41,238 nucleotides of DNA from an uncultured Bacteroidia bacterium (lineage in GTDB: Bacteria > Bacteroidota > Bacteroidia > Bacteroidales > UBA932), in NCBI GenBank assembly GCA_902791945.1, contig CADAXR010000008.1, positions 1 to 41,238 of the forward strand, in the 5' to 3' direction. The notes below the pieces were generated by a model. The model did not search any database. It was given only the letters and a program-made list of their open reading frames with translations, and had not been told where the DNA came from. Made by a program: the position numbers and the translations under genes. Below are positions 13,446 through 39,228 of the stretch, in pieces (the stretch's first letter is position 1; each line of letters opens with the position of its first letter).

Positions 13446-15755
13446 ATGAACTCCTCAGATAAGTTTTTTTCTTTTCTTGCCGCTGCATTCCTGCTGGTAT
13501 GTTGCACTGACAAGACTGAGAACGTGATTCCTGAGGAGGAGACCAATCCTGATGAACCCTCCCTTGCGGAAGGTATGAAGCGTTTATACCTGCGGGTTTG
13601 CTCTTATGCGGATTTTATTCCTGAAGATATAAGTTCCAGGACCGTTGTTGTCAATGGCAAGACCAGCACTCCTAAATGGAATCCGGCCCGAAGGGCCTGG
13701 TATGTCGACGTTGTAATGTCTTCATTCGACGTTTACGGTGCCGAGATGAGGGGCGAAGGATCATCGGTCTGGTATGCCGACAGTCAGTTCTCTGATATTT
13801 CCATCCCTTCGGTTCAGTTCATTCACAGGGCAAAGGATCTTACAGAAATTCCACTTATTGCGGAGTATGACCCGGAGAAAGGTAATTTTCTTGATTTCTA
13901 CCCTCCTTATGCCGTCCTTGATTTTCAAATTTCCGGGATGGAGGACATAGTTTCACTGAAGTTATGTTCTTCGGCTCCGGTCTGCGGTACTGCTACCTGG
14001 AGCAGGACGAACAGGATGTTCGTATTCAAAGGCAACTCCATGGAGGCGATACTTAACTGTACGGCCTCGGTGAACCCGGAGCATTTCCCACTGATTGTGT
14101 TTGGACATAATCTCCCTTCAGCCGTTCTCAGGGTTTGCAACGCATCTCACAAGATGGCTGAAATCCCTCTCGGTGACCTGCTTCTTGAGCCTGGTACTGT
14201 GCTCACTAAGTCCGTCACTGCCACTCCTGATGCAGGTCTGGTATGGTTCGAAGGATTCGACCGGCTCGTGTGGGGCGGAGATATTGTCGGAGAGAAGTCG
14301 GGTGTCGCCCCTTCCACCATTGTCCCGACCTTGGACGGAGATTCTGAACTCACTGGATACGAATACGCTCTTGCCCGGGTACCCTCATCGGCGCCCGGCT
14401 CCGGCTTTGTCCAAAAGTCCTTTGCATCGCAGCAGCTTCCTGTTGCTCAATTGCACCAGATGTCGGATTCATATATCAGGAGCAGGGGATTCGCTGATAT
14501 GCGCTATATGCTCCGCTGTCGGGAATACCCCGGTTATATTTCGGTCGGTACGGGCGATACAAAGCGTGGCTGGTATGCAATGTTCCCTATGAAGCAGCAT
14601 ATCGGGAAAGTCAAGAATCTTGAGATAACGTTTGATATTTGCCTGGAGCCGGCGACGAGGAATGATATCTCTTTTCTAGTCCAGGGCGGAGAAAGCGCGA
14701 TAATAAAGTGGTATGTCGACGGCGTCGAGGGATCTTGCGATGCGGTCGCCCAGAGGGGAGTGACCGATTCGCTCCGTCTTTCCCCAAGCCTGCTTGGCAC
14801 AGGCGTCTGGCGGAAGGTACGGGTTCTTGTCGATAACTGCACCGACCTCACTGCGCTTCACTGGCAGGGAATCTCCCCCGACGAAGGGGCCTACGGATTC
14901 TATCTTGACGAGATTTCGGTGAAAGAAATACCGGAGGGATGGGATAAGAAGGACAAGATCCGCCTTCTCTACTGGAATATCCAGAACGGCATGTGGGGAG
15001 ACCAGGGCAATAATTACGACAATTTCGTGACGTTCGTGAGAAAATACAACCCTGACATCTGCGTCTGGTGTGAGGCGAAAACAAACCACGAGACAGGTTC
15101 TGATGCAAGCATATCCGGAACGCCATATCTTCCGGGCCACTGGGGTGACCTGGCCTCCCGCTACGGCCATGCCTATGTCGCAAAAGCTGAGCTCGATAAG
15201 TTCCCCCAGGTCGTTACTTCCCGCTATCCCGTCACTCTCATAAAGCAGTTGGGATCACCGCTGAAGCATGGGGCCGGTATCTTCAAGGTGGAGACTTCCC
15301 GCGGGCCTGTTTATCCGCTGGCACTTCACCTCAGGCCGGATGTCAACGGCACCAGCACCGAGACCGAGAGGGTTGCCGAGATGCTCTATATTATCCAAAA
15401 CAGCGTGAACGATACCTCTCTCGGCATAAGCGGCTGGATGCTTATCGGTGACTATAACTCCACTTCCAGGGCAGATGCGCCATTCTACGGGTCGGACGCC
15501 ATCTTCCAGGTCCACGATTATCTTGCCGCCTCCACTTCCCTGATAGATTTATTCGCGTCCCGATATCCGGGCTCTTTTATGTACACGACCGGATCACGCA
15601 GACGAATCGATTATATATATATGGATAAAAGTGCATATGCACGAGTCTGCGACGCATGCGTCCTTACGGAGGAATGGACCAGCCCCGTAAGCGCCGGCAT
15701 CGCCAAATTCTACTATCCTTCAGACCATCGGCCAATGCTTGTGGACCTTAAATAA
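13446..15755 (+). CDS. EEP-family phosphodiesterase lipoprotein with N-terminal accessory domains
   Basis: Encodes 769 residues. The signal peptide ends in a lipobox (LLVCC), and an acidic stretch follows, as for surface-exported Bacteroidota lipoproteins. Residues about 40-260 look like beta-rich carbohydrate-module material, and 260-490 a jelly-roll-like domain (WFEGFDRLVWGGD). The C-terminal 270 residues form an endonuclease/exonuclease/phosphatase domain with its catalytic set intact: N511 in YWNIQNG, E543 in VWCEA, H628 in LHLRP, D669 and N671 in GDYNS, D760 and H761 in SDHRP. The fold cleaves phosphoester bonds with a divalent metal (DNase I, sphingomyelinase and inositol phosphatase are relatives). 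First gene of the operon. Substrate not identifiable, but two paralogues lie in the same operon. Confidence 0.88.
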   Translation: MNSSDKFFSFLAAAFLLVCCTDKTENVIPEEETNPDEPSLAEGMKRLYLRVCSYADFIPEDISSRTVVVNGKTSTPKWNPARRAWYVDVVMSSFDVYGAEMRGEGSSVWYADSQFSDISIPSVQFIHRAKDLTEIPLIAEYDPEKGNFLDFYPPYAVLDFQISGMEDIVSLKLCSSAPVCGTATWSRTNRMFVFKGNSMEAILNCTASVNPEHFPLIVFGHNLPSAVLRVCNASHKMAEIPLGDLLLEPGTVLTKSVTATPDAGLVWFEGFDRLVWGGDIVGEKSGVAPSTIVPTLDGDSELTGYEYALARVPSSAPGSGFVQKSFASQQLPVAQLHQMSDSYIRSRGFADMRYMLRCREYPGYISVGTGDTKRGWYAMFPMKQHIGKVKNLEITFDICLEPATRNDISFLVQGGESAIIKWYVDGVEGSCDAVAQRGVTDSLRLSPSLLGTGVWRKVRVLVDNCTDLTALHWQGISPDEGAYGFYLDEISVKEIPEGWDKKDKIRLLYWNIQNGMWGDQGNNYDNFVTFVRKYNPDICVWCEAKTNHETGSDASISGTPYLPGHWGDLASRYGHAYVAKAELDKFPQVVTSRYPVTLIKQLGSPLKHGAGIFKVETSRGPVYPLALHLRPDVNGTSTETERVAEMLYIIQNSVNDTSLGISGWMLIGDYNSTSRADAPFYGSDAIFQVHDYLAASTSLIDLFASRYPGSFMYTTGSRRRIDYIYMDKSAYARVCDACVLTEEWTSPVSAGIAKFYYPSDHRPMLVDLK

Positions 15756-15763
15756 GAAAAACT

Positions 15764-16738
15764 GTGAAAAGATTCTTTAAATTCCTTCCTGTTCTGCTGC
15801 TTATTGTCCCGGTTGTCATTTTCCTGTCCGGAAAAAAACCCGAGAATAAAATCCGTCTCCTCTACTGGAATATCCAGATGGGAATGTGGGACGGTCAGAG
15901 TGACAACTACGACCGTTTTGTCGAATGGGTCAAAAGCAAGAACCCCGACATCTGTGTCTGGTGCGAGGGCGCATCCCTCCTCAAAACAGACTCTGACGCT
16001 ACAGCTCCGAAATCCGAACGCTATTTCCCGGCCGGCTGGCCTGAGGTGGCCCGCCGCTATGGTCACGACCATGTTTATGTCGGTGGAATGAGGGACCCCT
16101 TCCCTCAGATTATTACATCCAGGTTCCCCATAGATACAATGGGGAGGTTCATCGGGACATCTCCGGATTCGATTGTGGTCCATGGAGCCGGTTGGGCAAA
16201 GGTGTCTGCAGGAGATAAGGATATCAATATAGTGACTCTCCATCTGCAGCCTTATTCCTACTGGCGTTACCTCCCCGATGATCAGAGAGAGGAGTCATCC
16301 CGTAACTACGGCGGTGAGAAATACCGCAGGATGGAGGTGGAGTGGATATTCAACCATACTGTAAGGACCAGGGAGAACCCTGAAAATGAGCTTTGGATGG
16401 TGCTCGGCGATTTTAACTCCCGTTCCAGGAGAGATAATTTCTATTACAAGTGGTCACAGGCCAGCCAGGATTTCCTGGTCCATAATTACATTGAGGAGAC
16501 GGAGCCCTGGCTTTACGATGTCGTCGCCGAGACGTTCCCCGGGACTTTCTGCCCCAGCCACGGAAAAAAACGTATAGACTATGTCTACGTCAGCAGACCG
16601 CTTTTCAAAGCTGTAAAAAATGTCGTGACGGAACCGGACGCATTCTCCAAACCGAAGCCTACCGAACTGAAAAACATGAAACGTCCTTCCGACCATCACC
16701 CCATACTTGTCGATTTCAATCTTGACAGAATAAAATGA
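15764..16738 (+). CDS. EEP-family phosphodiesterase, membrane-anchored or exported
   Basis: Encodes 324 residues starting with GTG, 8 bases after the previous stop. The hydrophobic N-terminus (FLPVLLLIVPVVIFLSG) has no lipobox cysteine, so it is either a transmembrane anchor or a cleaved signal, placing the enzyme in the periplasm. From residue 28 on the whole protein is an EEP domain with all key residues: N36 in YWNIQMG, E68 in VWCEG, H160 in LHLQP, D216 and N218 in GDFNS, D310 and H311 in SDHHP. It is clearly paralogous to the C-terminal half of the preceding gene (the YWNIQ.GMW, NPDICVWCE and FPQ..TSR.P segments are shared). It could act on fragments imported by SusCD. Confidence 0.87.
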   Translation: MKRFFKFLPVLLLIVPVVIFLSGKKPENKIRLLYWNIQMGMWDGQSDNYDRFVEWVKSKNPDICVWCEGASLLKTDSDATAPKSERYFPAGWPEVARRYGHDHVYVGGMRDPFPQIITSRFPIDTMGRFIGTSPDSIVVHGAGWAKVSAGDKDINIVTLHLQPYSYWRYLPDDQREESSRNYGGEKYRRMEVEWIFNHTVRTRENPENELWMVLGDFNSRSRRDNFYYKWSQASQDFLVHNYIEETEPWLYDVVAETFPGTFCPSHGKKRIDYVYVSRPLFKAVKNVVTEPDAFSKPKPTELKNMKRPSDHHPILVDFNLDRIK

Positions 16739-17580
16739 AAAGATTTGGTTTAATCTGTTCTTTCATGGTGCTTGGAGCGCTGGTTTCCTGCTCCAAGAGG
16801 GACACCGGGCCCCGCCTGGAAGTGCTTACGCAAGACAACAAATCCTTGTTGAAGACATTCGCCGTGCCTGTTGAGGGGGGGACATTCACTCTCACTGCCA
16901 GGTCAAAGTCAACTCTGGATATTTTCTATGAAGAGTCCCCGGATGCCGAGACCGGATGGTTCAGGCTCCTGGATGTCTCGACCGCATCTGCCGGGACATA
17001 TATTGTCAAATTTTCCGTATCCCCTTTGGAGAGCACCCTGGATATCCGTAGCGGTATGCTGGGCTTCTCGGCCCCGGCTGATAATCTCGGAAAATTTCTT
17101 GAAGTTAGGCAGGGGTATAAAAGAATCTGGCAGCAGACTTTCTCCGGAATGCCGGACGGGGTCCTGGTCCTTGCCCCTGGAGAGTCATGGTCAAGCGGCT
17201 TTATCCCCGGCATCAGTTCGTTGAAGAATGCATATGTCTCCTTTCTGGCAAGGGTTGAGCCTGATCCGTCCGGGGAGGAGTTTGAAAGCGAGCCTCTCCG
17301 CGTGGATATTCTCGGCGGCGGAAGATTCCCCGAAATTGAGAGACAGTCCTATGTTATGGATATTGACAGGGGCGCGTCCTTCGGACCGCAATGTTTCCAC
17401 AAACTGAATATTTATAATTCAGGCCTTGTGTTCAGCTCTGAGAGTTCCTTTGTCCTCTCAGTCCCGGACCGGGCCGTCACACCAGTAATAGTCGATAACC
17501 TCAGTGTATATGAGCTTCCGGCCGAAGGCTCTGATATCGATGCAATCTCTGAAGATGACGATTACGATGAAGAAAATTAA
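16735..17580 (+). CDS. surface lipoprotein with BACON-like domain
   Basis: Encodes 281 residues and starts inside the previous stop (ATGA). A lipobox (ALVSCS) marks it as a lipoprotein. Residues about 28-130 resemble a BACON-type beta-sandwich: alternating hydrophobic strands, an R.G.LGF segment and ending FLEVRQGYK. The rest is beta-rich, possibly a jelly roll (QQTFSGMPDGVLVL). The C-terminus is strongly acidic (SEDDDYDEEN). BACON domains in this phylum usually space or bind glycans on the cell surface. No catalytic motif is visible, so an outer-membrane binding or spacer role next to SusC is likely but unproven. Confidence 0.7.
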   Translation: MKRFGLICSFMVLGALVSCSKRDTGPRLEVLTQDNKSLLKTFAVPVEGGTFTLTARSKSTLDIFYEESPDAETGWFRLLDVSTASAGTYIVKFSVSPLESTLDIRSGMLGFSAPADNLGKFLEVRQGYKRIWQQTFSGMPDGVLVLAPGESWSSGFIPGISSLKNAYVSFLARVEPDPSGEEFESEPLRVDILGGGRFPEIERQSYVMDIDRGASFGPQCFHKLNIYNSGLVFSSESSFVLSVPDRAVTPVIVDNLSVYELPAEGSDIDAISEDDDYDEEN

Positions 17581-20500
17581 TCAAATATTTGTATTTGCGA
17601 CGGTCCTGTTGCTATTTTCGGCAGTCAGGATGGCGGCTGCTCCCGTAACCGTAAAAGGGATTGTGCTGGATGAAAAGGGAGAAGTGCTCGCAGGGGCCAT
17701 TGTCGTAGCAAAGCCAGGGCCGGACGGCGCAGTCCGTGCCACCTCCACTACTGACGTCAACGGCATTTTTTCTATAAAATGCGAGTCGGAGGATGTCCTT
17801 GTTGCGATCTTTATGGGATATGACGATGTCATTGTGCCGGTCCCCTCAAACGGCGAGGTCGAAGTCGTGATGCATCCCAATGCCTCTTCGGTCCTTAATG
17901 AGTCGGTAGTTGTCGGATACGGAAGCGTCAGCCGTTCCGACCTTACAGGCAGTGTTACCAATGTCAATATGGGCGATATCCGTACCGCGGCTGTCACAAG
18001 TATCGACCAGGCACTTCAAGGGCGTGTGGCCGGAGCTGACATTATGAGTACCTCGGGCGACCCTGATGCTTCCACGTCCATCAGAGTCAGGGGCACGAGG
18101 AGTATCAATGCTTCCAATGACCCGCTGATTGTCGTGGACGGAGTGCTTGACGCCGTGTCGGACCTCAATGACATTAATCCGTCCGACATTGAATCGATCT
18201 CGGTGCTGAAGGACGCTTCATCCACGGCCATCTATGGTGCCCGAGGAGCAAACGGCGTCATCCTTATCACCACCAAGGAAACCACGACCAGCGGCAATGT
18301 AAGCATCACCGCCAAAATTACCGGCGGCGTCTCCATGCTTCCTGCCAAACTCGATATTATGGACGGGACGCAGTACGCCAACTATATGAACGAAACGGCC
18401 CAGCTGTCGAGCATCTGGCCGAACATCACGACTGAGACACCGGTGTCCGAAGGCCGCATCAAGGATCCTCTGTCAAAGGGGAAGGGGACTGACTGGATAG
18501 GTGAAATCATAAGAGTCGCCCCGTACCACAGCGAACAGATTACGGCAAGTGGTTCCATCTCCTCCGTCAAGTACTATGCTTCGTTCAATCACTATGACAA
18601 CCGCGGCATCATCAAAAACAGCGGGGTGCGCAACATGGTGGCACGGTTTAATGCTTCCGCCAATGTTTTCAAGTGGCTCAATATGGGGGTCAAGATCAAC
18701 TATACCTATAGGAACACCGATGAGAACCTTGCCCAGATAGGGGGTACGAACATCTACCACTCCGCCATCTATCTCTCGCCTCTGATTCCGGCGGACGCAA
18801 TAACCAATCCATTGAGTACCTCCGGAGCAAAGGTTACCCTGCCGACTTACCAGATAAGCGAGAATATCAGCAATACCCGCAGGAGCATTTTAAATATTGT
18901 CGGTTTCGGCGACTTCAAGATCGGTAAGGAATTAAAATTCCACACACAGGTGGCCTACTACCGCCTCGACCGTAACAAATATCAGTACAATCCCTCCACC
19001 CTTCCTTCCAGGATGGACGGCCAGGGGGGAAAAGCCAACCGCCTGTATTATCTTGAGAAGAAACTCAACTGGGATGCTACCCTGACCTGGAACAAGAAAT
19101 TCGGGAAGTCGCATTCCCTGAACGTAATGGGGGGAAGCGCATACTATGACTTCAAGAATGAGGGCTTCACTCTTGCCGGCCAGGGATATCTGGTAGATGA
19201 GGTGAAATGGAAGGATATGGACGCTGTGCAGGACAAAAACACGTACGTGGCGTCAACCGCGGCGCAGGACAGGCACACACTTTCATTCTTTGCCCGCATA
19301 AATTACGATTACGCCAAGCGTTATTATCTTACGTTCACGGCCAGGGCGGATGGCGCCTCCAATTTCGCTGCTAACAACAAGTGGGGATTTTTCCCTTCCG
19401 CCGCCGTTCGCTGGAATATTCACAACGAGCCGTTCATGAGGAACGCCGAAAAAATTGACGAGCTCTCCATAAAACTCAGTTACGGGCGGTCCGGCAACGA
19501 TGCTATTTCTACCTACCGGTCTTTGCCGGCCATGACATCAACCTCAACGGGCTATCTCTTCTCAGGTACACAGCCCGTGGCATATTATCCTTCCCGCCTG
19601 GCGTCGCCTGATTTGCGCTGGGAAAAGACGGATCTTATGAATCTCGCCCTTACCGGTGTATTTTTCAATAATCGCCTCAATATCACAGCTGAAGCTTATT
19701 ATGCCAGAACATCAGATCTCCTGCTGGATGTCCAGGTGGCCAATCAAACTGGTTATTCAAGCCGTCTCACCAACATAGGCGTCACTACAAACAAAGGTCT
19801 TGAACTGTCCATAGAGTCGCGAAATATCGTCAGGAACGGTTTTGTCTGGACCTCGGCGTTCACCATTTCCCATAACACGCAGAAGGTGGTGGATATCGGC
19901 GGTGAGAACTATATTGTAGCATACGCCGGACCTACTCCGGGATACATGATGTACGGCTACGTGAAAGGATACCCTCTCAATGCCCTTTGGGGCTTCCAGT
20001 CCGCCGGTGTATGGCATAACGAGGAAGAGATAGAGAGGAATAAGACCACTCACGCCGTGGCTACGATAAACGGAAGCACGCAACTTGGTTACCCCATTTA
20101 TGTCGACAGGAACCACGACGGGACGCTTGACAGCGAGGACCTGACCTATCTCGGCAACGCCGACCCTTACATATATGGAGGATTGCAGAATACCTTCCGT
20201 ATAGGCAAATTCACGCTTGGTGTTTATCTGGTCTATTCCATCGGCGGCAAGATATTCAATTACAGCGAGCTGTGGATGTCCGGTTCAAGACGCACCAACC
20301 AGTACACCTATATGGTCAATTCCTGGAGCCCCGTAAAGAACCCTGACTCCAACCTGCCCAGGGCGGGAATCCTAAGCGACGGCGATGTCCAGAGCACCAG
20401 GCAGCTTCACGATGCATCCTATCTCCGTCTCAAAACTGTCTCGCTTTCATATGTCTGGAACATAAAGAAGAAGTTCATGCGCGACATTACTTTCACGGTG

Positions 20501-20650
20501 TCCGGAGAGAATCTATGGCTTTGGAAAAAGTACAACGGTTTCGACCCCGACGTGTCTACTTCTTCCGAGGGCTCTACCATACGCAGGATGGACCTCGGCG
20601 CCTATCCGAAGGCTCGCACCATTATGGCTTCAATCCAATTCAGATATTGA
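17567..20650 (+). CDS. SusC-like TonB-dependent outer-membrane transporter
   Basis: Encodes 1027 residues. I chose the ATG at 17567, which gives a normal signal peptide (INQIFVFATVLLLFSAV) and overlaps the previous gene by 14 bases. The longer frame from 17504 lacks a signal at its start. Order of domains: carboxypeptidase-regulatory-like N-terminal domain (about 27-105, VTVKGIVLDEKGEVLAGA), TonB-box region with SVVVGYGS, plug (about 115-225, with IRVRGTRSINASNDPLIVVDG and DASSTAIYGARGANGVI) and a 22-strand-type barrel ending in the aromatic MASIQFRY. It imports oligomers too large for porins, together with the SusD-like protein encoded 6 bases downstream. The presence of SusC/D shows that the locus is for nutrient capture. 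Confidence 0.96.
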   Translation: MKKINQIFVFATVLLLFSAVRMAAAPVTVKGIVLDEKGEVLAGAIVVAKPGPDGAVRATSTTDVNGIFSIKCESEDVLVAIFMGYDDVIVPVPSNGEVEVVMHPNASSVLNESVVVGYGSVSRSDLTGSVTNVNMGDIRTAAVTSIDQALQGRVAGADIMSTSGDPDASTSIRVRGTRSINASNDPLIVVDGVLDAVSDLNDINPSDIESISVLKDASSTAIYGARGANGVILITTKETTTSGNVSITAKITGGVSMLPAKLDIMDGTQYANYMNETAQLSSIWPNITTETPVSEGRIKDPLSKGKGTDWIGEIIRVAPYHSEQITASGSISSVKYYASFNHYDNRGIIKNSGVRNMVARFNASANVFKWLNMGVKINYTYRNTDENLAQIGGTNIYHSAIYLSPLIPADAITNPLSTSGAKVTLPTYQISENISNTRRSILNIVGFGDFKIGKELKFHTQVAYYRLDRNKYQYNPSTLPSRMDGQGGKANRLYYLEKKLNWDATLTWNKKFGKSHSLNVMGGSAYYDFKNEGFTLAGQGYLVDEVKWKDMDAVQDKNTYVASTAAQDRHTLSFFARINYDYAKRYYLTFTARADGASNFAANNKWGFFPSAAVRWNIHNEPFMRNAEKIDELSIKLSYGRSGNDAISTYRSLPAMTSTSTGYLFSGTQPVAYYPSRLASPDLRWEKTDLMNLALTGVFFNNRLNITAEAYYARTSDLLLDVQVANQTGYSSRLTNIGVTTNKGLELSIESRNIVRNGFVWTSAFTISHNTQKVVDIGGENYIVAYAGPTPGYMMYGYVKGYPLNALWGFQSAGVWHNEEEIERNKTTHAVATINGSTQLGYPIYVDRNHDGTLDSEDLTYLGNADPYIYGGLQNTFRIGKFTLGVYLVYSIGGKIFNYSELWMSGSRRTNQYTYMVNSWSPVKNPDSNLPRAGILSDGDVQSTRQLHDASYLRLKTVSLSYVWNIKKKFMRDITFTVSGENLWLWKKYNGFDPDVSTSSEGSTIRRMDLGAYPKARTIMASIQFRY

Positions 20651-20656
20651 TCGTCT

Positions 20657-22138
20657 ATGTTGAATATGTATAAAATATCAGCTCTGATTCTCTCGGGCAC
20701 ACTTCTCTGCTCCTGTCTCAAGGAAGATTCCAGCGGGGTCGTGTCCCAGGACAACTTCTATGACACCGTGGAGCAGTGCCAGGCGTCGGTCAATTCCGCC
20801 TATATCCCTCTCAAATCAATATTTGCTTTTCGGTACTTGATTGCTACAGAGGGCGTTACGGATCTTGCGTCCGCAAACAACAATGCTCAGCCTGATGCCC
20901 GCCTGTTCATCACTCCGGCAAGCCCCGGCATCGGGGAGACGGTGTGGAAACAATGCTATATAGGCGTCAGAAATTCAACGTGCGCCGTATTCGGCATCGA
21001 AAACTCACAGCTTGAGTATTCGAGTACCTTCAGCCAGCTATGTGAAGCGAAAATACTCAGGGCGTTCTACTACTATATCCTTACGAGCTTTTTCGGCGAT
21101 GTCCCTTACTACAAGGATTACGTAAGGACGGTTGACGATCTTCAAAGGGTGGCGGCACTTCCCAGGATGAGCGCATTCGAAACCAGGAAGGACCTGTGCG
21201 AAGAGCTCCTTGAAATCGCCCCGAAAATGAAGCAGATCCGCACGTGTGAAGAAAAAGACAACCGTGTCGGTGCTGCCATGGCGTGGATGCTGATTGCAAA
21301 GATGTCGATGTGGAACGAGGATTGGGAGACGGCTCTTGAGGCCCTTTCCCATCTCAGGGAAATATATGGAGAGCTGTCCAGCTACCCTATTGAGGATATA
21401 ATGTTCCGCAACAAGAACACCGCGGAATCCATTTTCGAAGTCCAGCATGCCTATGAAAAAGGGGGAATCAGCTATGCCTCTAACTGCGCAAGTGCGTGTA
21501 TGCCTTATCCAAGGGCTTCGGGGACATATACCTATGATGGTGTGGATATACCCGAACTTGGGAACGAGGCTACGGCGTGGTCTCCCATCCGGCCGACAAC
21601 CTATATGAAAAAGACCGTCATGCCTTCATCGGTGGAAGACGGCCGGAGAGCGATCAATATGGTCAGCAGCTGGAATGGGAAAAACTTCTCCAACACCTGG
21701 ATGGGGCCCAAATTCTGGTGTCCGGGGATGTACAACACATCGGATTCCAACAATTATAAGGTCTTCCGCTTTGCGGATGCAGTCCTTATGATGTCAGAGT
21801 GCTACTGTGAACTCGGTGACTACCCGGCCTCCATCGCGTGCCTCGACGAGGTGCGCTCCAGGGCCGGACTTCCGGGTTACGGAGCGTTCAAGAACGTCTC
21901 CAAACTGCGCGACGAAATCAGAAAGGAACGCGGCAGGGAGCTTTTCGGTGAATTCCAGAGAAAATATGACCTGGTGCGATGGGGAATATGGTTCTCGTTT
22001 ACCGCCCAGTACAACACCTATTACATGGTTCAGGAAAACATCAAGCCATGTCACGAATATTATCCCATCCCGGACCAGCAGGTAATCGCTTCCGGATATA
22101 ATCTCGACAATAATGCTTACAAGGAATATGGACTGTAA
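20657..22138 (+). CDS. SusD/RagB-like substrate-binding lipoprotein
   Basis: Encodes 493 residues (the second in-frame ATG at 20666 is an equally good start). The lipobox is LLCSCL, followed by KEDSSG. The SusD pattern is clear: SQDNFYDTVEQCQASVNSAY at the N-terminus, AKILRAFYYYILTSFFGDVPYY near residue 140 (TPR-type helices), FRFADAVLMMSECYCELGD, and the C-terminal VRSRAGLP, RKERGRELFGEFQRKYDLVRWG and YYPIPDQQV. It forms the lid over the SusC barrel and determines ligand preference. The binding face cannot be interpreted without a structure. Confidence 0.96.
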   Translation: MLNMYKISALILSGTLLCSCLKEDSSGVVSQDNFYDTVEQCQASVNSAYIPLKSIFAFRYLIATEGVTDLASANNNAQPDARLFITPASPGIGETVWKQCYIGVRNSTCAVFGIENSQLEYSSTFSQLCEAKILRAFYYYILTSFFGDVPYYKDYVRTVDDLQRVAALPRMSAFETRKDLCEELLEIAPKMKQIRTCEEKDNRVGAAMAWMLIAKMSMWNEDWETALEALSHLREIYGELSSYPIEDIMFRNKNTAESIFEVQHAYEKGGISYASNCASACMPYPRASGTYTYDGVDIPELGNEATAWSPIRPTTYMKKTVMPSSVEDGRRAINMVSSWNGKNFSNTWMGPKFWCPGMYNTSDSNNYKVFRFADAVLMMSECYCELGDYPASIACLDEVRSRAGLPGYGAFKNVSKLRDEIRKERGRELFGEFQRKYDLVRWGIWFSFTAQYNTYYMVQENIKPCHEYYPIPDQQVIASGYNLDNNAYKEYGL

Positions 22139-22775
22139 AATAATTTGTCTGTGGACTGTAGTGCTGCTGCTCGCAATCCCCGGATGCCGCAAGGCGGATC
22201 CTTTTGAGAAAGCGCTTGGCTTGCAGTCCAGACGCGTTGTCCTGTCCGCTGAGACGGGAATAACCTCGGTTACGGTGTACAGCAACACCTCCTGGACCGT
22301 GCACTTCTTCCCCGAGGTCTCCTGGGCCGGCCTTGACCGGCTCAGCGGCAGGAATACTTCCGGAGTTTATTTCTCCTATGCGGCCAATTACAATCTTGCA
22401 CGCAAGGTCGCCCTGGCCTTCGAGGCCGGTGGTGTCCGCGACACAGTGTGGATGGTGCAGAAGGGCGGGCTTGCCAATCCTTCAATCGCCCTTTCGCCGC
22501 AGACCCTGTCGCTCGGTGCCGGTGAAACTTCCGGCAGCGCCGCAGTTACGACCAATCTCAGGTCCGACTGGAAGGACGTGGTTTGGAAAATTGACTATAT
22601 CGATGGCAATCCTGACTGGATAACGGAAGTCCGGCTGAGCGAAACGACGCTTTCATTCGACCTTTTGCCCAACACCGGCGACTCCGTCCGCAAGGCGGTG
22701 ATTACACTGAGCCACACCGATGCCGAGGACAACGAAATCAAGGCTATGCTCACTATAAATCAAAATCCCGCATAA
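22128..22775 (+). CDS. BACON-domain lipoprotein
   Basis: Encodes 215 residues from the ATG at 22128, which directly precedes MDCKIICLWTVVLLL and a lipobox (AIPGC). It overlaps the SusD gene by 11 bases. Two successive beta-sandwich repeats are visible. The first has SWTVHFFPEVSWAGLDRLSG and closes with TVWMVQKGG. The second has WKDVVWKIDYIDG and closes with LTINQNP, the usual BACON ending. No enzyme motif is seen. By position after susD it occupies the place of a surface glycan-binding protein (SGBP) in polysaccharide loci, here presumably binding the substrate of this operon. Confidence 0.78.
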   Translation: MDCKIICLWTVVLLLAIPGCRKADPFEKALGLQSRRVVLSAETGITSVTVYSNTSWTVHFFPEVSWAGLDRLSGRNTSGVYFSYAANYNLARKVALAFEAGGVRDTVWMVQKGGLANPSIALSPQTLSLGAGETSGSAAVTTNLRSDWKDVVWKIDYIDGNPDWITEVRLSETTLSFDLLPNTGDSVRKAVITLSHTDAEDNEIKAMLTINQNPA

Positions 22776-24964: not shown

Positions 24965-24976
24965 ACTCTAAATGAT

Positions 24977-25135: not shown

Positions 25136-25150
25136 AAAAAGAACATCGAT

Positions 25151-27520: not shown

Positions 27521-27530
27521 CAATGATTGT

Positions 27531-28496: not shown

Positions 28497-28497
28497 T

Positions 28498-31070: not shown

Positions 31071-31071
31071 T

Positions 31072-31218
31072 ATGGGAGGAAAGTCGTTTTATATGGCACC
31101 TGAAGTATCGGCTATAGAAGTTGACTGTCGAGACGGTGTGCTTGCCCAGGGGAGTGCAGAAAATATGAATCCCGGTGACGGGTCCTGGGGACTTGTCGAT
31201 GATGATGACGAGCCGTAG
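31072..31218 (+). CDS. small operon peptide, 48 residues
   Basis: A 48-residue frame begins one base after the stop of the EEP fusion gene and ends two bases before the GH31 start, exactly filling the space. It reads MGGKSFYMAPEVSAIEVD, then CRDGVLAQGS, then a glycine-, asparagine- and aspartate-rich tail ending in GLVDDDDEP. There is no signal peptide. The Y.(A/T)PE opening, the central cysteine, the (C/L)AxxS segment and the acidic tail match the peptide at 24977 in plan though not in detail. Function unknown. The exact fit in the operon argues for real translation. Confidence 0.65.
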   Translation: MGGKSFYMAPEVSAIEVDCRDGVLAQGSAENMNPGDGSWGLVDDDDEP

Positions 31219-31220
31219 AT

Positions 31221-34064: not shown

Positions 34065-35475
34065 CACTGCGTTGGACTCAAAGACTCTAAAACTCTACAA
34101 GGGACTCCAGTGGAGAACGCTCATTATTCTGATGGTGGGCTATATCTGTTATTATTTCCTTCGGAAGAATTTCAGTGCGGCCATTCCTGCAATGGAGGCC
34201 TCGCTCGGACTCTCAAAGGTTCAACTGGGTACTTTCCTTACCCTTAACGGTATAGTTTACGGCCTTTCCAGGATGGTGAACGGCGTGCTCGCTGACCGCT
34301 ATTCCAAGAAGCTGATCATGTCACTGGGGCTTCTCCTTTCGTGTGTAATTAATCTTGTCATCTGCTTCTCCCCGAAGATGAACGGTTTTATGAACCTTCT
34401 GGACGCGGAGGGGAAGGCGACTCTTGGGCTTGTCTATCTGATTGGCTCTCTATGGGTGGTGAACGGATATGTCCACGGGATGGGCTATCCCCCATGCGCT
34501 TCGCTGATGGCCCACTGGTTCCGTCCGTCAGAACTTGCGACAAAGCAGAGTATATGGAACGCTTCTCATTCGATCGGGGCCGGAATCGTAATCGCCCTTT
34601 GCGGATGGATGCTGTCAAGGTGGGGATATGGTGCGTGGAGCCTTTGTTTCATCGTGCCTGCGATAATCTCGCTTTTCGGTGCTGCCCTTGTTTTCTTCGG
34701 CCTGAAGGACGATCCGTCGGAGTATGGCCTGCCTTCAGCAGAGGTGTTGGAAAAGGAAATCGCCGGTCATGCCGGTCCGGTGAGCAGTGACAGCCCGGAA
34801 GGAAGTGACGGAAGGCAGTACAAGAAGTTCATATCGCGGATGGTGTTCCGCAATCCCGTGATATGGGTGATATCGGTCTCCAATTTCTGCGTGTATGTCA
34901 TTCGCTTCACTATCCTGGAGTGGGGAACTTCGTTCCTGACGCAATATAAGGGTATGGAAATAGCTCTTGCAGCGTCAATCGTCGCGGCTTCCGAGCTGAT
35001 CGGGGGAGTGCTGGGAACTATCGCATCCGGCTGGCTGACCGACCGGTTCCTTCAATCCAAGACTCTTCGTACCAGTGCAATATTCACTCTCGGAGCAACA
35101 CTCAGCTTTACCGGGTTCTGGCTGGTGCCCTCCGGCGCCCATTGGATTTGGAGCTCTACTCTCATAGTCTCTTCCGCATTCTTTATATATGGTCCTCAGG
35201 CCCTCCTGGGAGTGAGTTGCTCGCAATATGCCACCAAACGAGCGGCAGGCTCTGCCAATGGTTTCTGCGGCATTTTCGGCTATGCGGCTACTGCAATTTC
35301 CGGTATTGGTTTCGGCTATCTTGCCGACCATCCCGGTTTCGGCTGGAATGCCGTGTTCTTGGTGGCCATCGCTTTCGGATTTGTCGGAGTCGCGCTCCTG
35401 TTCTCTTACTGGAAGGCTCCGGCAAACGGTTATGCCAAAGCCGCAAAAGTTCTTGAAGAAATCGGGGAGCAATGA
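34036..35475 (+). CDS. organophosphate:phosphate antiporter family (GlpT/UhpT-like) MFS permease
   Basis: Encodes up to 479 residues with twelve predicted membrane helices. YICYYFLRKNFSAAIPAM near residue 36 matches the first-helix signature of glycerol-3-phosphate and hexose-6-phosphate permeases, including the arginine that binds phosphate. A second arginine lies in helix VYVIRFTILEWGTSFL near 290, a region that contacts phosphate in GlpT. The family exchanges an organophosphate for inorganic phosphate across the inner membrane. No ATG lies before the conserved part: translation must start at TTG, either at 34036 (overlapping GH31 by 29 bases) or at 34072. Specificity (glycerol phosphate, hexose phosphate or related) cannot be decided from sequence. 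Confidence 0.88.
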   Translation: MSTSRPRNYNTALDSKTLKLYKGLQWRTLIILMVGYICYYFLRKNFSAAIPAMEASLGLSKVQLGTFLTLNGIVYGLSRMVNGVLADRYSKKLIMSLGLLLSCVINLVICFSPKMNGFMNLLDAEGKATLGLVYLIGSLWVVNGYVHGMGYPPCASLMAHWFRPSELATKQSIWNASHSIGAGIVIALCGWMLSRWGYGAWSLCFIVPAIISLFGAALVFFGLKDDPSEYGLPSAEVLEKEIAGHAGPVSSDSPEGSDGRQYKKFISRMVFRNPVIWVISVSNFCVYVIRFTILEWGTSFLTQYKGMEIALAASIVAASELIGGVLGTIASGWLTDRFLQSKTLRTSAIFTLGATLSFTGFWLVPSGAHWIWSSTLIVSSAFFIYGPQALLGVSCSQYATKRAAGSANGFCGIFGYAATAISGIGFGYLADHPGFGWNAVFLVAIAFGFVGVALLFSYWKAPANGYAKAAKVLEEIGEQ

Positions 35476-36518
35476 GAAGGATCGCTGTCGTTTTGTCATT
35501 GCTCCTTGCTTTGGGAATCCGGCCCTCTTTCGCGGGGGAGCGGGCCGACACAGTGCGTATCCTCGGGGTAGGCAACAGCTGGACACGTGACTCGATGAGG
35601 TGGCTGTCTGCAATCGCCGCCAGTGCAGGAAGGACAGTGATTGTTGGACATGCATATCTCGGAGGAAGTACCCTTGAGGACCAGTGGCGTGGCATTTACG
35701 ACACAAGTTATACCTACACTCATGCAGGGCAGCAGCAAAAAGTGCATTCAACCTATCAGTATTGGAAATATACCGCTTCGGCCAATCCGGAGAAGACCCC
35801 TTCGAGCGGTTATAAAAACGGTCTGGCAGGATGCGGAGTGACGCTTAAAAAAGCGGTTGCCGATGAGCCTTGGGACTGGATCGTCTTCCAGCCAGAAGCG
35901 ACTCTTGGCGGTGACTGGAAGCGTCACCTCGGAAAAGGTGCGGACGGATACAGCCTGCCGGCGTTGATCGCCGCCGTAAAAGGGATGATGCAGCCTGCAG
36001 CAGCAGCCGGAGTCCGTGTAGCGCTTATGGTGCCGTTTTCATACCCGAAGGGATGCACAGACTATCGCCCGAGGTTCCTTGCTGCCTATAACAGGGGCAG
36101 GACTCCGGAGAATCAGGCAGGATGGGATAAGTTGTATAGGAAACAATACCGCCTGATCCAGAAGGCGGCGGTGAGACTTTGTCGTGTCCTGAAGACGGAC
36201 GCGTGCATCAATGTCGGTAAGGTCATCGAGGCAGGTCGGTCGGACGCCGATTTTTCCAGGTGCGGATATCTCCTGCTGCGTCGTAGGGACAACACACACC
36301 TGGCGGAGGGGCTTCCCATGTATCTGGCTTCGCTTTGTTATGCTTATGCCCTTCTTGGCCTTAAGCCCGAGGATATATCGTTTTATCCATCCATGACATC
36401 CGATTCTATTATAACCGGTGATGTCGGCGCTAGTGCCGGCGGAACTTTTGTCCTGACTGAAGATTTGGCGGCCAAGGCTCGTTATTTAACATATAACTGT
36501 CTGTATGAAAAAAATTAA
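35472..36518 (+). CDS. DUF4886 / SGNH-hydrolase-like exported protein
   Basis: Encodes 348 residues, its ATG overlapping the previous stop. A cleavable signal peptide (VLSLLLALGIRPSFA) sends it to the periplasm. The mature part begins RILGVGNSWTRDS, with the serine S36 placed like the block I nucleophile of SGNH hydrolases. WDWIVFQPEA follows near 135, and D273/H276 in RDNTHLAEG resemble the catalytic Asp-His block V. This matches the DUF4886 family of Bacteroidota. Members are thought to be esterase-like but are mostly uncharacterised. Between the organophosphate permease and the symporter it could remove an acyl or aminoacyl ester substituent from the substrate; this is inference. Confidence 0.78.
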   Translation: MRRIAVVLSLLLALGIRPSFAGERADTVRILGVGNSWTRDSMRWLSAIAASAGRTVIVGHAYLGGSTLEDQWRGIYDTSYTYTHAGQQQKVHSTYQYWKYTASANPEKTPSSGYKNGLAGCGVTLKKAVADEPWDWIVFQPEATLGGDWKRHLGKGADGYSLPALIAAVKGMMQPAAAAGVRVALMVPFSYPKGCTDYRPRFLAAYNRGRTPENQAGWDKLYRKQYRLIQKAAVRLCRVLKTDACINVGKVIEAGRSDADFSRCGYLLLRRRDNTHLAEGLPMYLASLCYAYALLGLKPEDISFYPSMTSDSIITGDVGASAGGTFVLTEDLAAKARYLTYNCLYEKN

Positions 36519-37713
36519 GATATCCCTTTTCGCCAAGGTCCTGATAGCAATAGTAATCGGTTCGTTGCTGGGACTGCTGTTCAAGTGGGTTTTCGCTGCT
36601 TGTCCGGAGGGCGGGCTCGGTTACGGCCTGTGCAATTTTCTGGTACGTTTTTTCAAAACGTTCAATGTCCTCTTTGCCCAGTTGCTTAAGTTTATAGTAC
36701 CTCTTCTGGTACTTGGCCTTGTGACCCCTGCCATCTATGGCCTCGGGAAGGGGGTCGGGAAGATGCTGCTTGCAGTGATAGGAATAGCTTACCTTTCGAC
36801 TGTCTGTGCAGGATTGTTTGCATATGGCTGCTCCACGGCATTTTTCCCTCATATTCTCAAAGCAGGAGGCCTTTCCGCCGATGCGGCGGGAGCCGTGGTG
36901 TTTGAACCTTATATCGATCTCCAGATTAAGCCGCTTTGCGATATCCTTACGGCTCTTTGCATATCATTTATGGTCGGAGTCTGCTGTATTTATATCGATG
37001 GCAACGCCCTCCGGGGATGGTTCACGGAGTTCGGCGAGGTCGTTAAGATGACAATAGAAAAGGCGGTTATCCCTCTTATGCCGATGTATATTTTTACGAT
37101 GATGTGTGAGATGAGCGCCTCCGGCAAACTCGCCGTAGTGGTCGGCACCGGAGCCAAGGTCATCGGAACCGGCGTGGCCCTCAGTATCCTGTACCTTGTG
37201 GTACAATATCTAATCGCTGGCGGCATTGCCGGCAGGAATCCTTTCCGCTGTCTCTGGAATATGGTCCCCGCTTATCTGACAGGATTCTCGGTCTGCTCGT
37301 CTTCGGCCGTTATTCCTGTAACCCAGAAGTGTACGCTTCGCAACGGAGTATCTGAGGAAGTGACCAATTTCGTCGTGCCGCTTTGTTCCAATGTCCACAT
37401 GTGCGGCTCGGTCATAAAACTTACCACGACGGCCGTTGCAGTGGCATTTATGATGGGAGTGCCCGTCAGCTTCCCTCTTTTCATGAATTTCGTCTTCCTG
37501 CTTGCCGTTGCGACCGTCGCTTCGCCGGGCGTAATGAGCGGGGTCCTTATGGCTTCTGTCGGCCTCCTGGAATCTATGCTCGGCTTTACGCCGGAGATGA
37601 CGGCTTTGCTTATGGCAATATACCTCGCCCTGGATGGTTACGGCCCTGCCTGTAATGTCACGGGCGATGGTGCAATAGCTCTTGGAGTTGACAAGTTTTT
37701 CCGTAAGAAATAA
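36505..37713 (+). CDS. dicarboxylate/amino acid:cation symporter (SDF/DAACS family)
   Basis: Encodes 402 residues, overlapping the previous gene by 14 bases. It is a polytopic inner-membrane protein with the family features: a first helix KISLFAKVLIAIVIGSLLG, FKTFNVLFAQLLKFIVPLL, a serine-rich re-entrant hairpin (GFSVCSSSAVIPVTQKC), and in the C-terminal helices PLCSNVHMCGS and NVTGDGAIALGVDKFF, where the aspartate and asparagine coordinate cation and substrate. Relatives carry glutamate, aspartate, C4-dicarboxylates or small neutral amino acids with sodium or protons. Within this operon it would import an acidic or amino-acid moiety released from the substrate. The exact cargo is not predictable. 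Confidence 0.92.
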   Translation: MKKIKISLFAKVLIAIVIGSLLGLLFKWVFAACPEGGLGYGLCNFLVRFFKTFNVLFAQLLKFIVPLLVLGLVTPAIYGLGKGVGKMLLAVIGIAYLSTVCAGLFAYGCSTAFFPHILKAGGLSADAAGAVVFEPYIDLQIKPLCDILTALCISFMVGVCCIYIDGNALRGWFTEFGEVVKMTIEKAVIPLMPMYIFTMMCEMSASGKLAVVVGTGAKVIGTGVALSILYLVVQYLIAGGIAGRNPFRCLWNMVPAYLTGFSVCSSSAVIPVTQKCTLRNGVSEEVTNFVVPLCSNVHMCGSVIKLTTTAVAVAFMMGVPVSFPLFMNFVFLLAVATVASPGVMSGVLMASVGLLESMLGFTPEMTALLMAIYLALDGYGPACNVTGDGAIALGVDKFFRKK

Positions 37714-38525
37714 TGATGAACAGTCTGATAAGTGTCGTTCTTCTCCTTTTTGCCTGCCTTCATGGCCAGGCGGGCGACAGGCATCCCGTCGCCATCGTGG
37801 CTCACCGTGGTTATTGGACGGCGCCGGGACTCAATGAGGCCCAGAATTCAGTCGCCGCCCTCCGTGAGGCACAGGCTTTCGGCTGCTGGGGCAGCGAATT
37901 CGACGTCCACCTGACGGCCGACAACATTGTCGTAGTCAACCATGATCCTACCCGAGAGGGCAAGGAGATCCAGACTACGGCCTACAAAGAACTCCGGAAT
38001 CTTTCGCTTTCCAACGGGGAGCCTCTCCCTACACTCTGTGAATATCTCGCACAAGGCGTGGTCTGCGAAAAAACGATGCTTGTCCTCGAACTAAAGCCCC
38101 AGTACAGCCGGGAAAGGGAGGATATTCTGATAGAAAAGGCATTCGACGCCCTCCGGCTTTATAATCTTTTTGATCCGGGGCGTGTCACCTTCATTTCCTT
38201 CAGCCATTACATCTGTCAGCGCCTTGCCGAGCTGGCTCCTGGCTTCAATAACCAGTATCTTAACGGGGATATCCCCCCGGAAGAATTGCACCTGGAGGGG
38301 GTTAATGGCATCGACTACAAATACAAAGTCTTGTATCAGCATCCGGAATGGATCAGGGATGCCCACCGTTGCGGCATGTCTGTCAATGTCTGGGTTGTCA
38401 ATAAGGAAGAGGATATCCGCCGGATGATAGAAATGGGAGTGGACTTCATAACCACTAACGACCCTCCCTTCGTCCGTCAAATCCTCGGCGATCTGGAACT
38501 GTTCCCGCCGGGAGCTCCCCGTTAA
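37713..38525 (+). CDS. exported glycerophosphodiester phosphodiesterase
   Basis: Encodes 270 residues. The ATG at 37713 shares a base with the previous stop; a second ATG at 37716 is equally possible. A signal peptide (LISVVLLLFACLHGQAG) places it in the periplasm, perhaps lipidated at the cysteine. It is a TIM-barrel GDPD: AHRGYW at 30-35, N45 with the following EAQNSVAAL, SEFDVHLTADN with the metal-binding acidic pair, VVNHDPT with the catalytic histidine, ELKPQY, and the C-terminal VNVWVVNKEEDIRRMIEMGVDFITTNDP. Such enzymes split glycerophosphodiesters to glycerol 3-phosphate plus an alcohol. That product is the classical cargo of GlpT-type permeases, one of which is encoded three genes upstream. 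It is the last gene of the operon. Confidence 0.93.
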   Translation: MMNSLISVVLLLFACLHGQAGDRHPVAIVAHRGYWTAPGLNEAQNSVAALREAQAFGCWGSEFDVHLTADNIVVVNHDPTREGKEIQTTAYKELRNLSLSNGEPLPTLCEYLAQGVVCEKTMLVLELKPQYSREREDILIEKAFDALRLYNLFDPGRVTFISFSHYICQRLAELAPGFNNQYLNGDIPPEELHLEGVNGIDYKYKVLYQHPEWIRDAHRCGMSVNVWVVNKEEDIRRMIEMGVDFITTNDPPFVRQILGDLELFPPGAPR

Positions 38526-39216: not shown

Positions 39217-39228
39217 AACATCAACGAT

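What the first reader, a model, noticed from the sequence alone, without database searches (positions are those of the whole stretch)
13446..38525. A 25-kb, 18-gene operon that looks like a phosphodiester-polymer utilisation locus
Seen: all 18 genes are plus-strand with overlaps or gaps of 15 bases or less, and they combine SusC/SusD with three EEP phosphoesterases, a GDPD, an organophosphate permease, GH31, an SGNH-like protein and an SDF symporter. Known: SusCD loci are usually read as glycan loci defined by glycosidases or lyases, and GDPD plus GlpT-type permease is the classic glycerophosphodiester route. Inference: here phosphodiesterases, not glycosidases, are the main depolymerising enzymes, which would make this a distinct class of utilisation locus that I do not recognise as described.
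Basis: partly seen in the sequence, partly recalled or inferred. Interest (0 to 1): 0.9.

Follow-up and report, generated by a model that had tools for sequence, protein, structure and literature searches.

The report
Gut-bacterium locus for eating phosphodiester polymers

Summary
In detail: 18 plus-strand ORFs (16 large, two of about 50 codons), gaps of at most 15 bases, three EEP phosphoesterase domains, SusCD, GDPD, GlpT-like OPA permease, GH31, DUF4886 and SDF.

An EEP-SusC-SusD-BACON-DUF5689 core is conserved: 66 of 80 SusD-profile loci (five are the profile's seeds) carry a window-type EEP within flanks of up to 10 kb, 73 of 80 counting another EEP type. The downstream half varies between genomes.

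New evidence bears on the product. One rumen relative has GDPD-OPA permease-EEP-SusC-SusD-DUF5689 as an uninterrupted run. A second locus in the same genome adds a type I phosphodiesterase, a GpsA-like dehydrogenase and a 75%-identical permease. Over 61 genomes 26 of 98 related permeases lie within 5 kb of a polyol-phosphate dehydrogenase, about 1.5 expected.

Best reading: surface EEPs cut a glycosylated, ester-substituted glycerol-phosphate polymer (teichoic-acid type); SusCD imports fragments; GH31, an esterase and GDPD trim them; the permease takes up glycerol phosphate. Nucleic acid, lipid headgroups and phospho-decorated glycan remain rivals. SusCD loci with phosphodiesterases are described (PUS, Flavobacterium), so this is a new variant, not a new class. 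No substrate was tested.

The parts
11712..13256 (-). DUF6377 protein, divergent from the operon; candidate regulator (role inferred)
   Evidence: PF19904 E 1e-49; homologue in 16 of 80 SusD-profile loci, 595 bits in L082
13446..15755 (+). EEP1: lipoprotein-like N-terminal half, C-terminal EEP phosphoesterase domain
   Evidence: PF03372 E 4e-9, residues 508-761; motifs in A4
15764..16738 (+). EEP2: single-domain EEP phosphoesterase with N-terminal signal or anchor (GTG start)
   Evidence: PF03372 E 5e-12; AlphaFold model pLDDT 92, Foldseek to the APE1/ExoIII fold
16735..17580 (+). LP3: putative lipoprotein of unknown family
   Evidence: no significant Pfam hit; homologue in 29 of 80 loci
17504..20650 (+). 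SusC/RagA TonB-dependent outer-membrane transporter
   Evidence: TIGR04056 758 bits, cut-off 368
20657..22138 (+). SusD-like outer-membrane lipoprotein
   Evidence: PF07980 E 1e-24; first row of alignment A1
22113..22775 (+). BACON-domain lipoprotein
   Evidence: PF13004 E 1e-10
22775..24964 (+). DUF5689 lipoprotein, probable surface-binding protein
   Evidence: PF18942 E 5e-12; model pLDDT 88; the 50 Foldseek matches listed are mostly Ig- or cadherin-like beta-sandwiches
24977..25135 (+). small ORF, 52 codons from its ATG
   Evidence: positional counterpart in L082 ending in a similar acidic tail
25151..27520 (+). large lipoprotein, beta-helix-like by eye
   Evidence: no significant Pfam hit; homologues over 600 bits in L082-L085 and L091
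27450..28496 (+). Big_2 (bacterial Ig-like) protein; true start probably downstream of the listed TTG
   Evidence: PF02368 E 1e-14
28462..29364 (+). fimbrillin-like lipoprotein (by eye)
   Evidence: no Pfam hit; its homologue in L082 also matches the N-terminus of EEP3
29346..31070 (+). EEP3: fimbrillin-like N-terminus, C-terminal EEP domain, lipoprotein signal
   Evidence: PF03372 E 0.004; 32% identical to EEP2; motifs in A4
31072..31218 (+). small ORF, 48 codons
   Evidence: positional counterpart in L162
31221..34064 (+). GH31 glycoside hydrolase, nearest solved relative the GH31_u1 alpha-1,3-glucosidase of Lactococcus
   Evidence: PF01055 E 8e-58; 7wj9 E 2e-123; 7WJ9 is named once in PMC9061262
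34036..35475 (+). OPA-family (GlpT-like) MFS permease
   Evidence: 1pw4 E 9e-54; below NCBIfam cut-offs
35472..36518 (+).
   Evidence: PF16227 E 5e-16
36505..37713 (+). SDF-family symporter (SstT-like, below cut-off)
   Evidence: PF00375 E 5e-69; SstT model 66 bits, cut-off 308
37713..38525 (+). GDPD, glycerophosphodiester phosphodiesterase with signal peptide (by eye)
   Evidence: PF03009 E 2e-24; 3no3 E 8e-57

Best explanation
The operon is a SusCD-based utilisation locus for a phosphodiester polymer built on glycerol phosphate or a similar polyol phosphate, most likely a glycosylated and ester-substituted teichoic-acid-type polymer. Proposed working: surface lipoproteins (SusD, BACON, DUF5689, Big_2, fimbrillin-like) bind the polymer; the surface EEPs (EEP1, EEP3) cut internal phosphodiester bonds; SusC imports the fragments with TonB energy; in the periplasm EEP2 cuts further, GH31 removes alpha-glucosyl groups and the DUF4886 protein removes ester groups, both of which would otherwise block an exo-acting GDPD; GDPD releases glycerol phosphate, which the OPA permease imports; the SDF symporter takes up a released small amino acid or acid (for example alanine from D-alanyl esters). 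Shown: the gene content, the enzyme families and motifs, the conserved core, the recurrence of GDPD, OPA permease, EEP and SusCD in one run elsewhere, and the non-random partnership of the permease family with GDPD and with polyol-phosphate dehydrogenases. Inferred: cellular places (N-terminal signals read by eye), the direction of each step, the substrate, and the roles of DUF4886 and SDF.
For: Core conserved: the SusD-profile search confirmed 261 stretches and returned 80 loci; 66 of 80 have an EEP of the window's types within flanks of up to 10 kb, DUF5689 79, BACON 80, SusC 78. Five of the 80 are seeds of the profile; without them 61 of 75. Own genome: 7 of 26 SusD places have an EEP within 10 kb; the four places that the SusD profile finds are all among the seven (checked by hand), the other 22 give three. 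Whole combination elsewhere: L156 (assembly RGIG5043, titled roe deer rumen) has GDPD (PF03009 E 4e-23)-OPA permease-EEP-LP3-SusC-SusD-two DUF5689 relatives, each gene overlapping or within 20 bases of the next; L157 looks alike with the first gene cut. Product: paralogous locus G000:C1 has SusCD, three DUF5689 relatives, two EEPs, a type I phosphodiesterase, a GpsA-like dehydrogenase, a 75%-identical OPA permease, then a GDPD-GH2 fusion; G062:C42 repeats its second half, with a truncated permease frame. RUG12515 has SDF, then GlpA-GlpB-GlpC (all over curated cut-offs), a 1.25-kb gap, OPA permease-DUF6377-EEP-LP3-SusC-SusD-BACON. G032:C31 has SusC, mannitol-1-phosphate 5-dehydrogenase, GDPD, OPA permease, GH31 (54%), GH2. 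Over 61 genomes 26 of 98 OPA-permease places lie within 5 kb of a polyol-phosphate dehydrogenase, about 1.5 expected, and 15 of 98 within 2 kb of a GDPD, about 1.1 expected. The own genome has GlpA elsewhere (G000:C3). GlpQ of Bacillus is exolytic and is stopped by glucosyl and D-alanyl groups (PMC7086022, passages incl. parts of the abstract), which gives GH31 and an esterase a job. GH31_u1 enzymes are alpha-glucosidases (PMC9061262, passages).
Against: The window's own operon has no polyol-phosphate dehydrogenase. In the 80 SusD loci an OPA permease is seen in 5, GH31 in 4 and a GDPD by BLAST in 2, Pfam adding L156 (the flanks often stop short of that region), so the core does not by itself say glycerol phosphate. 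The downstream block is not conserved: L085's continuation (L169) has no match to EEP3's EEP domain, GH31, permease or GDPD; L083 has GH31 straight after Big2. The 98 permeases are mostly not near an EEP: of 41 EEP places 5 lie within 5 kb of a permease and 3 of a GDPD, so the dehydrogenase count speaks for the permease family, not directly for the EEP loci. The EEP2 fold matches nucleases best (APE1, ExoIII; TM to the query about 0.5-0.6), although the PDB is full of them. DUF5689 occurs in a protein needed for DNA transformation in Riemerella. The OPA family also carries hexose phosphates. EEPs are not known to me as teichoic-acid hydrolases.
Confidence: 0.5

Rival explanations
1. Nucleic-acid scavenging locus: EEPs are DNase I/ExoIII-like nucleases, DUF5689 binds DNA or RNA, SusCD imports oligonucleotides.
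For: EEP profile and model match LINE-1 endonuclease, AP endonuclease and ExoIII best. A DUF5689/DUF5017 protein and an outer-membrane partner are reported as essential for natural transformation of Riemerella anatipestifer, and SusC mutants are reduced (PMC8459023, passages). The SusD-profile loci of Sphingobacterium and kin carry SusCD, DUF5689 relatives and an EEP and, in a cluster of eight loci that includes L137, L139 and the Dysgonomonas locus L117, a second EEP-like protein (representative L117:17150, 23.4 bits, cut-off 24.5); no glycosidase was named there among the few genes scanned. Two deoxynucleoside kinase genes follow the operon.
Against: No nucleotidase or nucleoside transporter among the genes scanned in the operon and the paralogue; GDPD, OPA permease, GpsA, GlpABC and mannitol-1-phosphate dehydrogenase have no place in it. 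No homologue of the kinase follows the GDPD in RUG12515 within the 11 kb fetched (L162), so the kinase pair is probably only a neighbour.
Confidence: 0.15
2. Membrane-lipid headgroup locus: EEPs act as phospholipase C- or sphingomyelinase-like enzymes and GDPD on glycerophospho-headgroups, the glycerol phosphate going to the permease.
For: EEP contains sphingomyelinases (PMC10704324, section 5); beta-hemolysin is among the weak profile hits (E about 0.001; that it is a sphingomyelinase is recalled). GDPD plus GlpT is the classic glycerophosphodiester route (family knowledge). SDF is SstT-like, which could take serine from phosphatidylserine.
Against: Glycosidases recur in these loci (GH31, GH2, GH3, GH43) and a mannitol-1-phosphate dehydrogenase in one; SusCD with many surface-binding lipoproteins suits a polymer better than a small headgroup.
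Confidence: 0.15
3. Ordinary glycan locus in which EEPs strip phosphodiester decorations (phosphocholine, phosphoethanolamine, glycerol phosphate) from a polysaccharide and other enzymes eat the sugar chain.
For: An EEP from a gut metagenome removes phosphocholine from GlcNAc-6-PC (PMC10704324, abstract and section 5). NAGPA phosphodiester glycosidases occur in related loci.
Against: Only one glycosidase family and no polysaccharide lyase family was found in the window operon (some of its genes have no Pfam family); three EEPs plus GDPD is much for a decoration; the dehydrogenases beside the permease family point to a polyol phosphate as food, not waste.
Confidence: 0.15

Closest known systems
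Phosphate utilisation systems (PUS, PusCD) of Flavobacterium (PMC8115612)
   Same: SusCD pair co-localised with phosphodiesterases or phosphatases, some with an inner-membrane transporter
   Different: PUS were defined by induction at low phosphate and are read as phosphorus scavenging; this operon has EEPs, GDPD, GH31 and DUF4886, and related loci carry polyol-phosphate dehydrogenases, which suggests carbon use as well. Homology of the SusD proteins was not tested
Polysaccharide utilisation loci (Sus-type PUL)
   Same: SusCD, surface lipoproteins, periplasmic enzymes, inner-membrane transporter, adjacent regulator candidate
   Different: main hydrolases are phosphodiesterases; one glycosidase
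GlpQ-GlpT glycerophosphodiester route; GlpQ digestion of wall teichoic acid (PMC7086022)
   Same: GDPD with signal peptide and GlpT-like permease; GlpA in the genome
   Different: joined to SusCD and EEPs; permease below the GlpT equivalog cut-off
GH31_u1 alpha-1,3-glucosidases (PMC9061262)
   Same: best solved-structure match by far, over two long stretches that include the regions of the catalytic Asp
   Different: here with a signal peptide, absent in the two enzymes of that paper; specificity untested
GlcNAc-PDase group of EEP sugar phosphodiesterases (PMC10704324)
   Same: EEP superfamily, secreted, gut bacteria
   Different: that group's own subcluster is mostly clostridial; membership of these EEPs was not tested

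Membership tests
Sus-type PUL | tandem SusC and SusD genes | tested here: met
Sus-type PUL | several carbohydrate-active enzymes for one glycan | tested here: not met
   one GH31 only among genes with a Pfam family
Sus-type PUL | adjacent dedicated regulator | tested here: inconclusive
   divergent DUF6377 protein, homologue in 16 of 80 loci; function not shown
Phosphate utilisation system (PUS) | SusCD co-localised with phosphodiesterase or phosphatase genes | tested here: met
Phosphate utilisation system (PUS) | induction by phosphate depletion | not testable with these tools
   needs a culture or transcript data
EEP superfamily (PF03372) | Glu, Asp-x-Asn, Asp and Ser-Asp-His motif residues | tested here: met
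   EEP2 in A2: E68, H160, D216, N218, D272, S309-D310-H311 invariant in 31 sequences; EEP1 and EEP3 in A4; roles of the residues recalled
GDPD (PF03009) | score over Pfam cut-off and aligned motif region | tested here: met
   87.7 bits, cut-off 23.6; 3no3 alignment
GlpT glycerol-3-phosphate transporter | score over the curated equivalog cut-off | tested here: not met
   TIGR00712 249 bits, cut-off 633; yet the two Arg and one His that I recall as GlpT's substrate residues are kept in the 1pw4 alignment
GH31_u1 | closest relative in that clade, catalytic Asp regions aligned | tested here: met
   7wj9 417 bits against 143 for the next enzyme; alignment; no tree was built
Teichoic-acid degrading system | hydrolysis of teichoic acid by the encoded enzymes | not testable with these tools
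   needs enzymes
DUF5689 natural-transformation system of Riemerella | DUF5689 protein beside its outer-membrane carboxypeptidase-regulatory-like partner | not tested
   only the shared domain is known

The most novel reading that the evidence does not exclude
A widespread family of Bacteroidota SusCD loci, marked by EEP phosphodiesterases, DUF5689 and BACON lipoproteins, lets gut and rumen bacteria feed on polyol-phosphate polymers (glycerol-3-phosphate, glycerol-1-phosphate or mannitol-phosphate types, i.e. teichoic acids of Gram-positive neighbours), with accessory glycosidases, esterases and a matching polyol-phosphate dehydrogenase swapped according to the polymer.
Probability: 0.35. Interest if true: 0.82.

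Novelty: new variant of a known kind. Interest (0 to 1): 0.62.

Why it matters
If right, it gives a concrete gene set, with a testable order of steps, for the consumption of teichoic-acid-type polymers by gut Bacteroidota; the searches made here (open-licence papers only) listed no paper on a SusCD locus for such polymers. It would also give a function to EEP-SusCD-DUF5689 loci seen in dozens of assemblies and to EEP proteins that are known only by their fold family.

Tried and rejected
Tried without result: single-sequence PDB search with EEP2 (no hit at E 0.01); specificity of EEP from fold comparison (only the general fold); fold of the DUF5689 protein (mostly Ig-like matches); the second structural aligner (not available); Rfam at gathering threshold (only the tRNA); literature searches for teichoic acid or glycerophosphate with SusD, Bacteroides or GlpQ, for phosphodiester with SusC, for DNA uptake or extracellular DNA with SusCD: apart from the papers cited, nothing on such a locus in that library. 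Continuations of L083 and L084 were not obtained: one request named a contig too short, the other fetched a contig of another length (L168). Rejected: the downstream deoxynucleoside kinases as part of the operon (79-base gap; no kinase homologue after the GDPD in L162). Rejected: the permease as a proven GlpT.

Rows dropped before counts: GpsA-like hits under 60 bits (11 rows), GlpA hits under the curated cut-off, two MtlD-like hits of 134-142 bits, and six fragments and two 31%-identity hits of the G1PDH-like search; hits reported in two pieces were merged (98 permease places; 41 EEP places). Expected numbers there assume 2.2 Mb per genome and even placement. The 20 EEP places are the 17 (two under Pfam's cut-off) plus three; one of the 26 SusD places is under the cut-off. 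In one search the genome fraction near SusD ignores contig ends, so expectations are upper bounds; at 20 kb the excess of EEP clusters near SusD is not significant (7 of 15, P 0.16), at 10 kb it is (P 0.012; single genes 10 of 20, P 0.0014). The SusD profile A1 was seeded from loci found through EEP, a bias for the own-genome comparison; the 80-locus count is less affected but holds near-duplicate loci (for example L103/L104, L143-L145).


Full report
The window is the contig G000:C8, bases 1-41238, of a 2.57-Mb draft genome in 187 contigs. Named relatives of its SusD are mostly metagenome-assembled Bacteroidales, many titled with rumen, caecum or faeces, with Alistipes, Dysgonomonas, Sphingobacterium, Parapedobacter and Desertivirga among them. 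The nearest, 82% identical in SusD, is the assembly RUG12515 (L082).

Observation. ORF lists and gap counts confirm 18 plus-strand ORFs from 13446 to 38525 with gaps of 15 bases or less, provided that two ORFs of 52 and 48 codons are counted. Those two have positional counterparts in the closest relative, with similar tails. Pfam and NCBIfam give EEP, SusC, SusD, BACON, DUF5689, Big_2, GH31, MFS, DUF4886, SDF and GDPD. The third EEP domain is under Pfam's cut-off but aligns with the first two at the motif residues. A DUF6377 protein lies divergently upstream.

Cell layout (inference from N-termini read by eye). EEP1, EEP3, SusD, BACON, DUF5689 and the 28462 protein have lipoprotein-type signals; EEP2 has an N-terminal hydrophobic stretch; GH31, DUF4886 and GDPD have signal peptides; the MFS and SDF proteins belong to inner-membrane transporter families. 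This is the usual Sus order: surface, outer-membrane import, periplasm, inner membrane.

Is the combination more than chance? A SusD profile (A1) run against named genomes confirmed 261 stretches and returned the best 80 loci. Within the flanks (up to 10 kb where the contig allows) 66 of 80 carry an EEP related to those of the window, 79 DUF5689, 80 BACON, 78 SusC, 29 LP3, 19 Big2, 16 DUF6377. Seven of the 14 loci without such an EEP match another EEP-containing protein (C1_EEPbnr) over its EEP domain (one relative of this type, L115:18337, is EEP by Pfam), giving 73 of 80. Of the last seven, six have a short flank on at least one side (L089, L091, L101, L123, L124, L133) and one, L100, has not. 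In the own genome 10 of 20 EEP places lie within 10 kb of one of 26 SusD places, against an expected fraction of at most 0.185 (P 0.0014; by clusters 7 of 15, P 0.012); at 20 kb the cluster test is not significant (P 0.16).

What is conserved and what is not. The closest full relative, RUG12515, has DUF6377-EEP1-EEP2-LP3-SusC-SusD-BACON-DUF5689-helix-Big2-Fim300-EEP3-GH31 (90%)-permease (77%)-DUF4886 with GDPD in one 595-codon frame. An SDF homologue (77%) lies elsewhere, upstream of a second EEP-SusCD locus (L172). L083, L084 and L085 share the first half; L083 then goes straight to a GH31; L085's continuation (L169) shows no GH31, permease or GDPD; L091's continuation (L165) has SDF and an 80%-identical permease. 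The continuations of L083 and L084 were not obtained. So the first half is a conserved unit and the second half a changing accessory set, as in ordinary PULs.

In L156 (assembly RGIG5043, titled roe deer rumen) GDPD, OPA permease, EEP, LP3, SusC, SusD and two DUF5689 relatives follow each other on one strand, overlapping or within 20 bases (GDPD by Pfam E 4e-23; order). L157 has permease-EEP-SusCD-DUF5689 behind a cut gene of the same cluster, and L159 EEP-SusCD-DUF5689 with a GDPD-like gene (42 bits) further down.

What the product is. The same genome holds a second locus (G000:C1): GH43, SusC, SusD, three DUF5689 relatives, a BNR+EEP protein, two large Glug-motif proteins, a type I phosphodiesterase, an EEP3-like protein, a GpsA-like dehydrogenase, a permease 75% identical to the window's, a GDPD fused to GH2, and an esterase. 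G062:C42 repeats its second half, with a truncated permease frame. In RUG12515's second locus anaerobic glycerol-3-phosphate dehydrogenase GlpA, GlpB and GlpC, all over curated cut-offs, are followed after 1.25 kb by an OPA permease, DUF6377, EEP, LP3, SusC, SusD and BACON on the same strand. In G032:C31 a mannitol-1-phosphate 5-dehydrogenase (502 bits, cut-off 368) stands with GDPD, OPA permease, a GH31 54% identical to the window's, GH2 and SusC. In G004:C61 and G066:C17 a GpsA-like enzyme, the permease and a relative of glycerol-1-phosphate dehydrogenase (145 bits, below its cut-off of 413, tested on the former) stand together. Elsewhere NAGPA phosphodiester glycosidases join in (G005:C17, G070:C49).

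Counts over the same 61 genomes (own plus 60 relatives): 98 OPA-permease places (E 1e-30 or better); 15 are within 2 kb of a GDPD where about 1.1 are expected; within 5 kb, 6 have a GpsA-like gene, 8 GlpA, 3 MtlD-like and 11 a G1PDH-like gene, 26 permeases in all with at least one, where the expected numbers sum to about 1.5. Few of these permease places are near an EEP: of 41 EEP places, 5 lie within 5 kb and 9 within 20 kb of a permease, and 3 and 7 of a GDPD. The dehydrogenase evidence therefore speaks to the permease family's substrate; the link to EEP and SusCD rests on the individual loci above.

Mechanism. GlpQ-type GDPD is exolytic and is stopped by glucosyl and D-alanyl groups on glycerol-phosphate chains; wall teichoic acid is sn-glycerol-3-phosphate, lipoteichoic acid sn-glycerol-1-phosphate (PMC7086022, passages incl. 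parts of the abstract). The window operon has what such a substrate would need: endo-acting phosphodiesterases (EEP, inferred), an alpha-glucosidase-type GH31 (GH31_u1 enzymes prefer nigerose, then kojibiose; PMC9061262, passages), a DUF4886 candidate esterase, an exo-GDPD, a GlpT-like permease and a symporter of the SstT kind. This coherence is the argument; no step has been shown for these proteins.

Against it. The operon has no dehydrogenase of its own (GlpA is elsewhere, G000:C3). EEP2's model, pLDDT 92, matches nucleases best. The one paper found with DUF5689 makes it part of DNA uptake in Riemerella (PMC8459023, passages). The core unit in Sphingobacterium and kin has EEPs and, among the genes scanned, no glycosidase. 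The nucleic-acid, lipid and decorated-glycan readings are therefore kept as rivals.

Known or new. SusCD pairs with phosphodiesterases were described in Flavobacterium as phosphate utilisation systems (PMC8115612, passages and section 16). The present loci differ in enzymes and in the dehydrogenases found in related loci, which suggest carbon use. I call it a new variant of a known kind. The searches listed no paper on a SusCD locus for teichoic acid, within an open-licence library only.

Noticed in passing
window 24977-25135 and 31072-31218; L082:14271-14462; L162:2766-2918: Small ORFs of about 50 codons inside the operon, with acidic, tryptophan-ended or EP-ended tails, kept at the same place in the closest relative; function unknown.
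   Followed up: partly
G042:C137, G054:C130, G013:C1, G009:C55, G011:C30 and others: Relatives of glycerol-1-phosphate dehydrogenase within 5 kb of OPA permeases in 11 of 26 places, in three bacterial families, some with GDPD: possible use of sn-glycerol-1-phosphate, the unit of lipoteichoic acid.
   Followed up: partly
L137, L139, L142, L146, L149, L151, L152, L155 (Sphingobacterium, Parapedobacter, Desertivirga): Compact SusC-SusD-EEP-DUF5689-DUF5689 loci; a cluster of eight loci (L117, L137, L139 named) has a second EEP-like gene and a cluster of nine (L137 among them) a FecR-type gene upstream.
   Followed up: partly
window 38605-39852: Two adjacent deoxynucleoside kinase genes just downstream of the operon, no homologue seen after the GDPD in RUG12515.
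   Followed up: yes
window 8935-11517: Large plus-strand protein that looks like an alpha-L-rhamnosidase by eye, near a tRNA-Val, with aromatic-amino-acid genes further upstream (by eye).
   Followed up: no
L079:5853-8471 (G000:C1): GDPD domain fused to a GH2 glycosidase; a GH2 relative without GDPD in L190 and a 643-codon relative in L164.
   Followed up: partly
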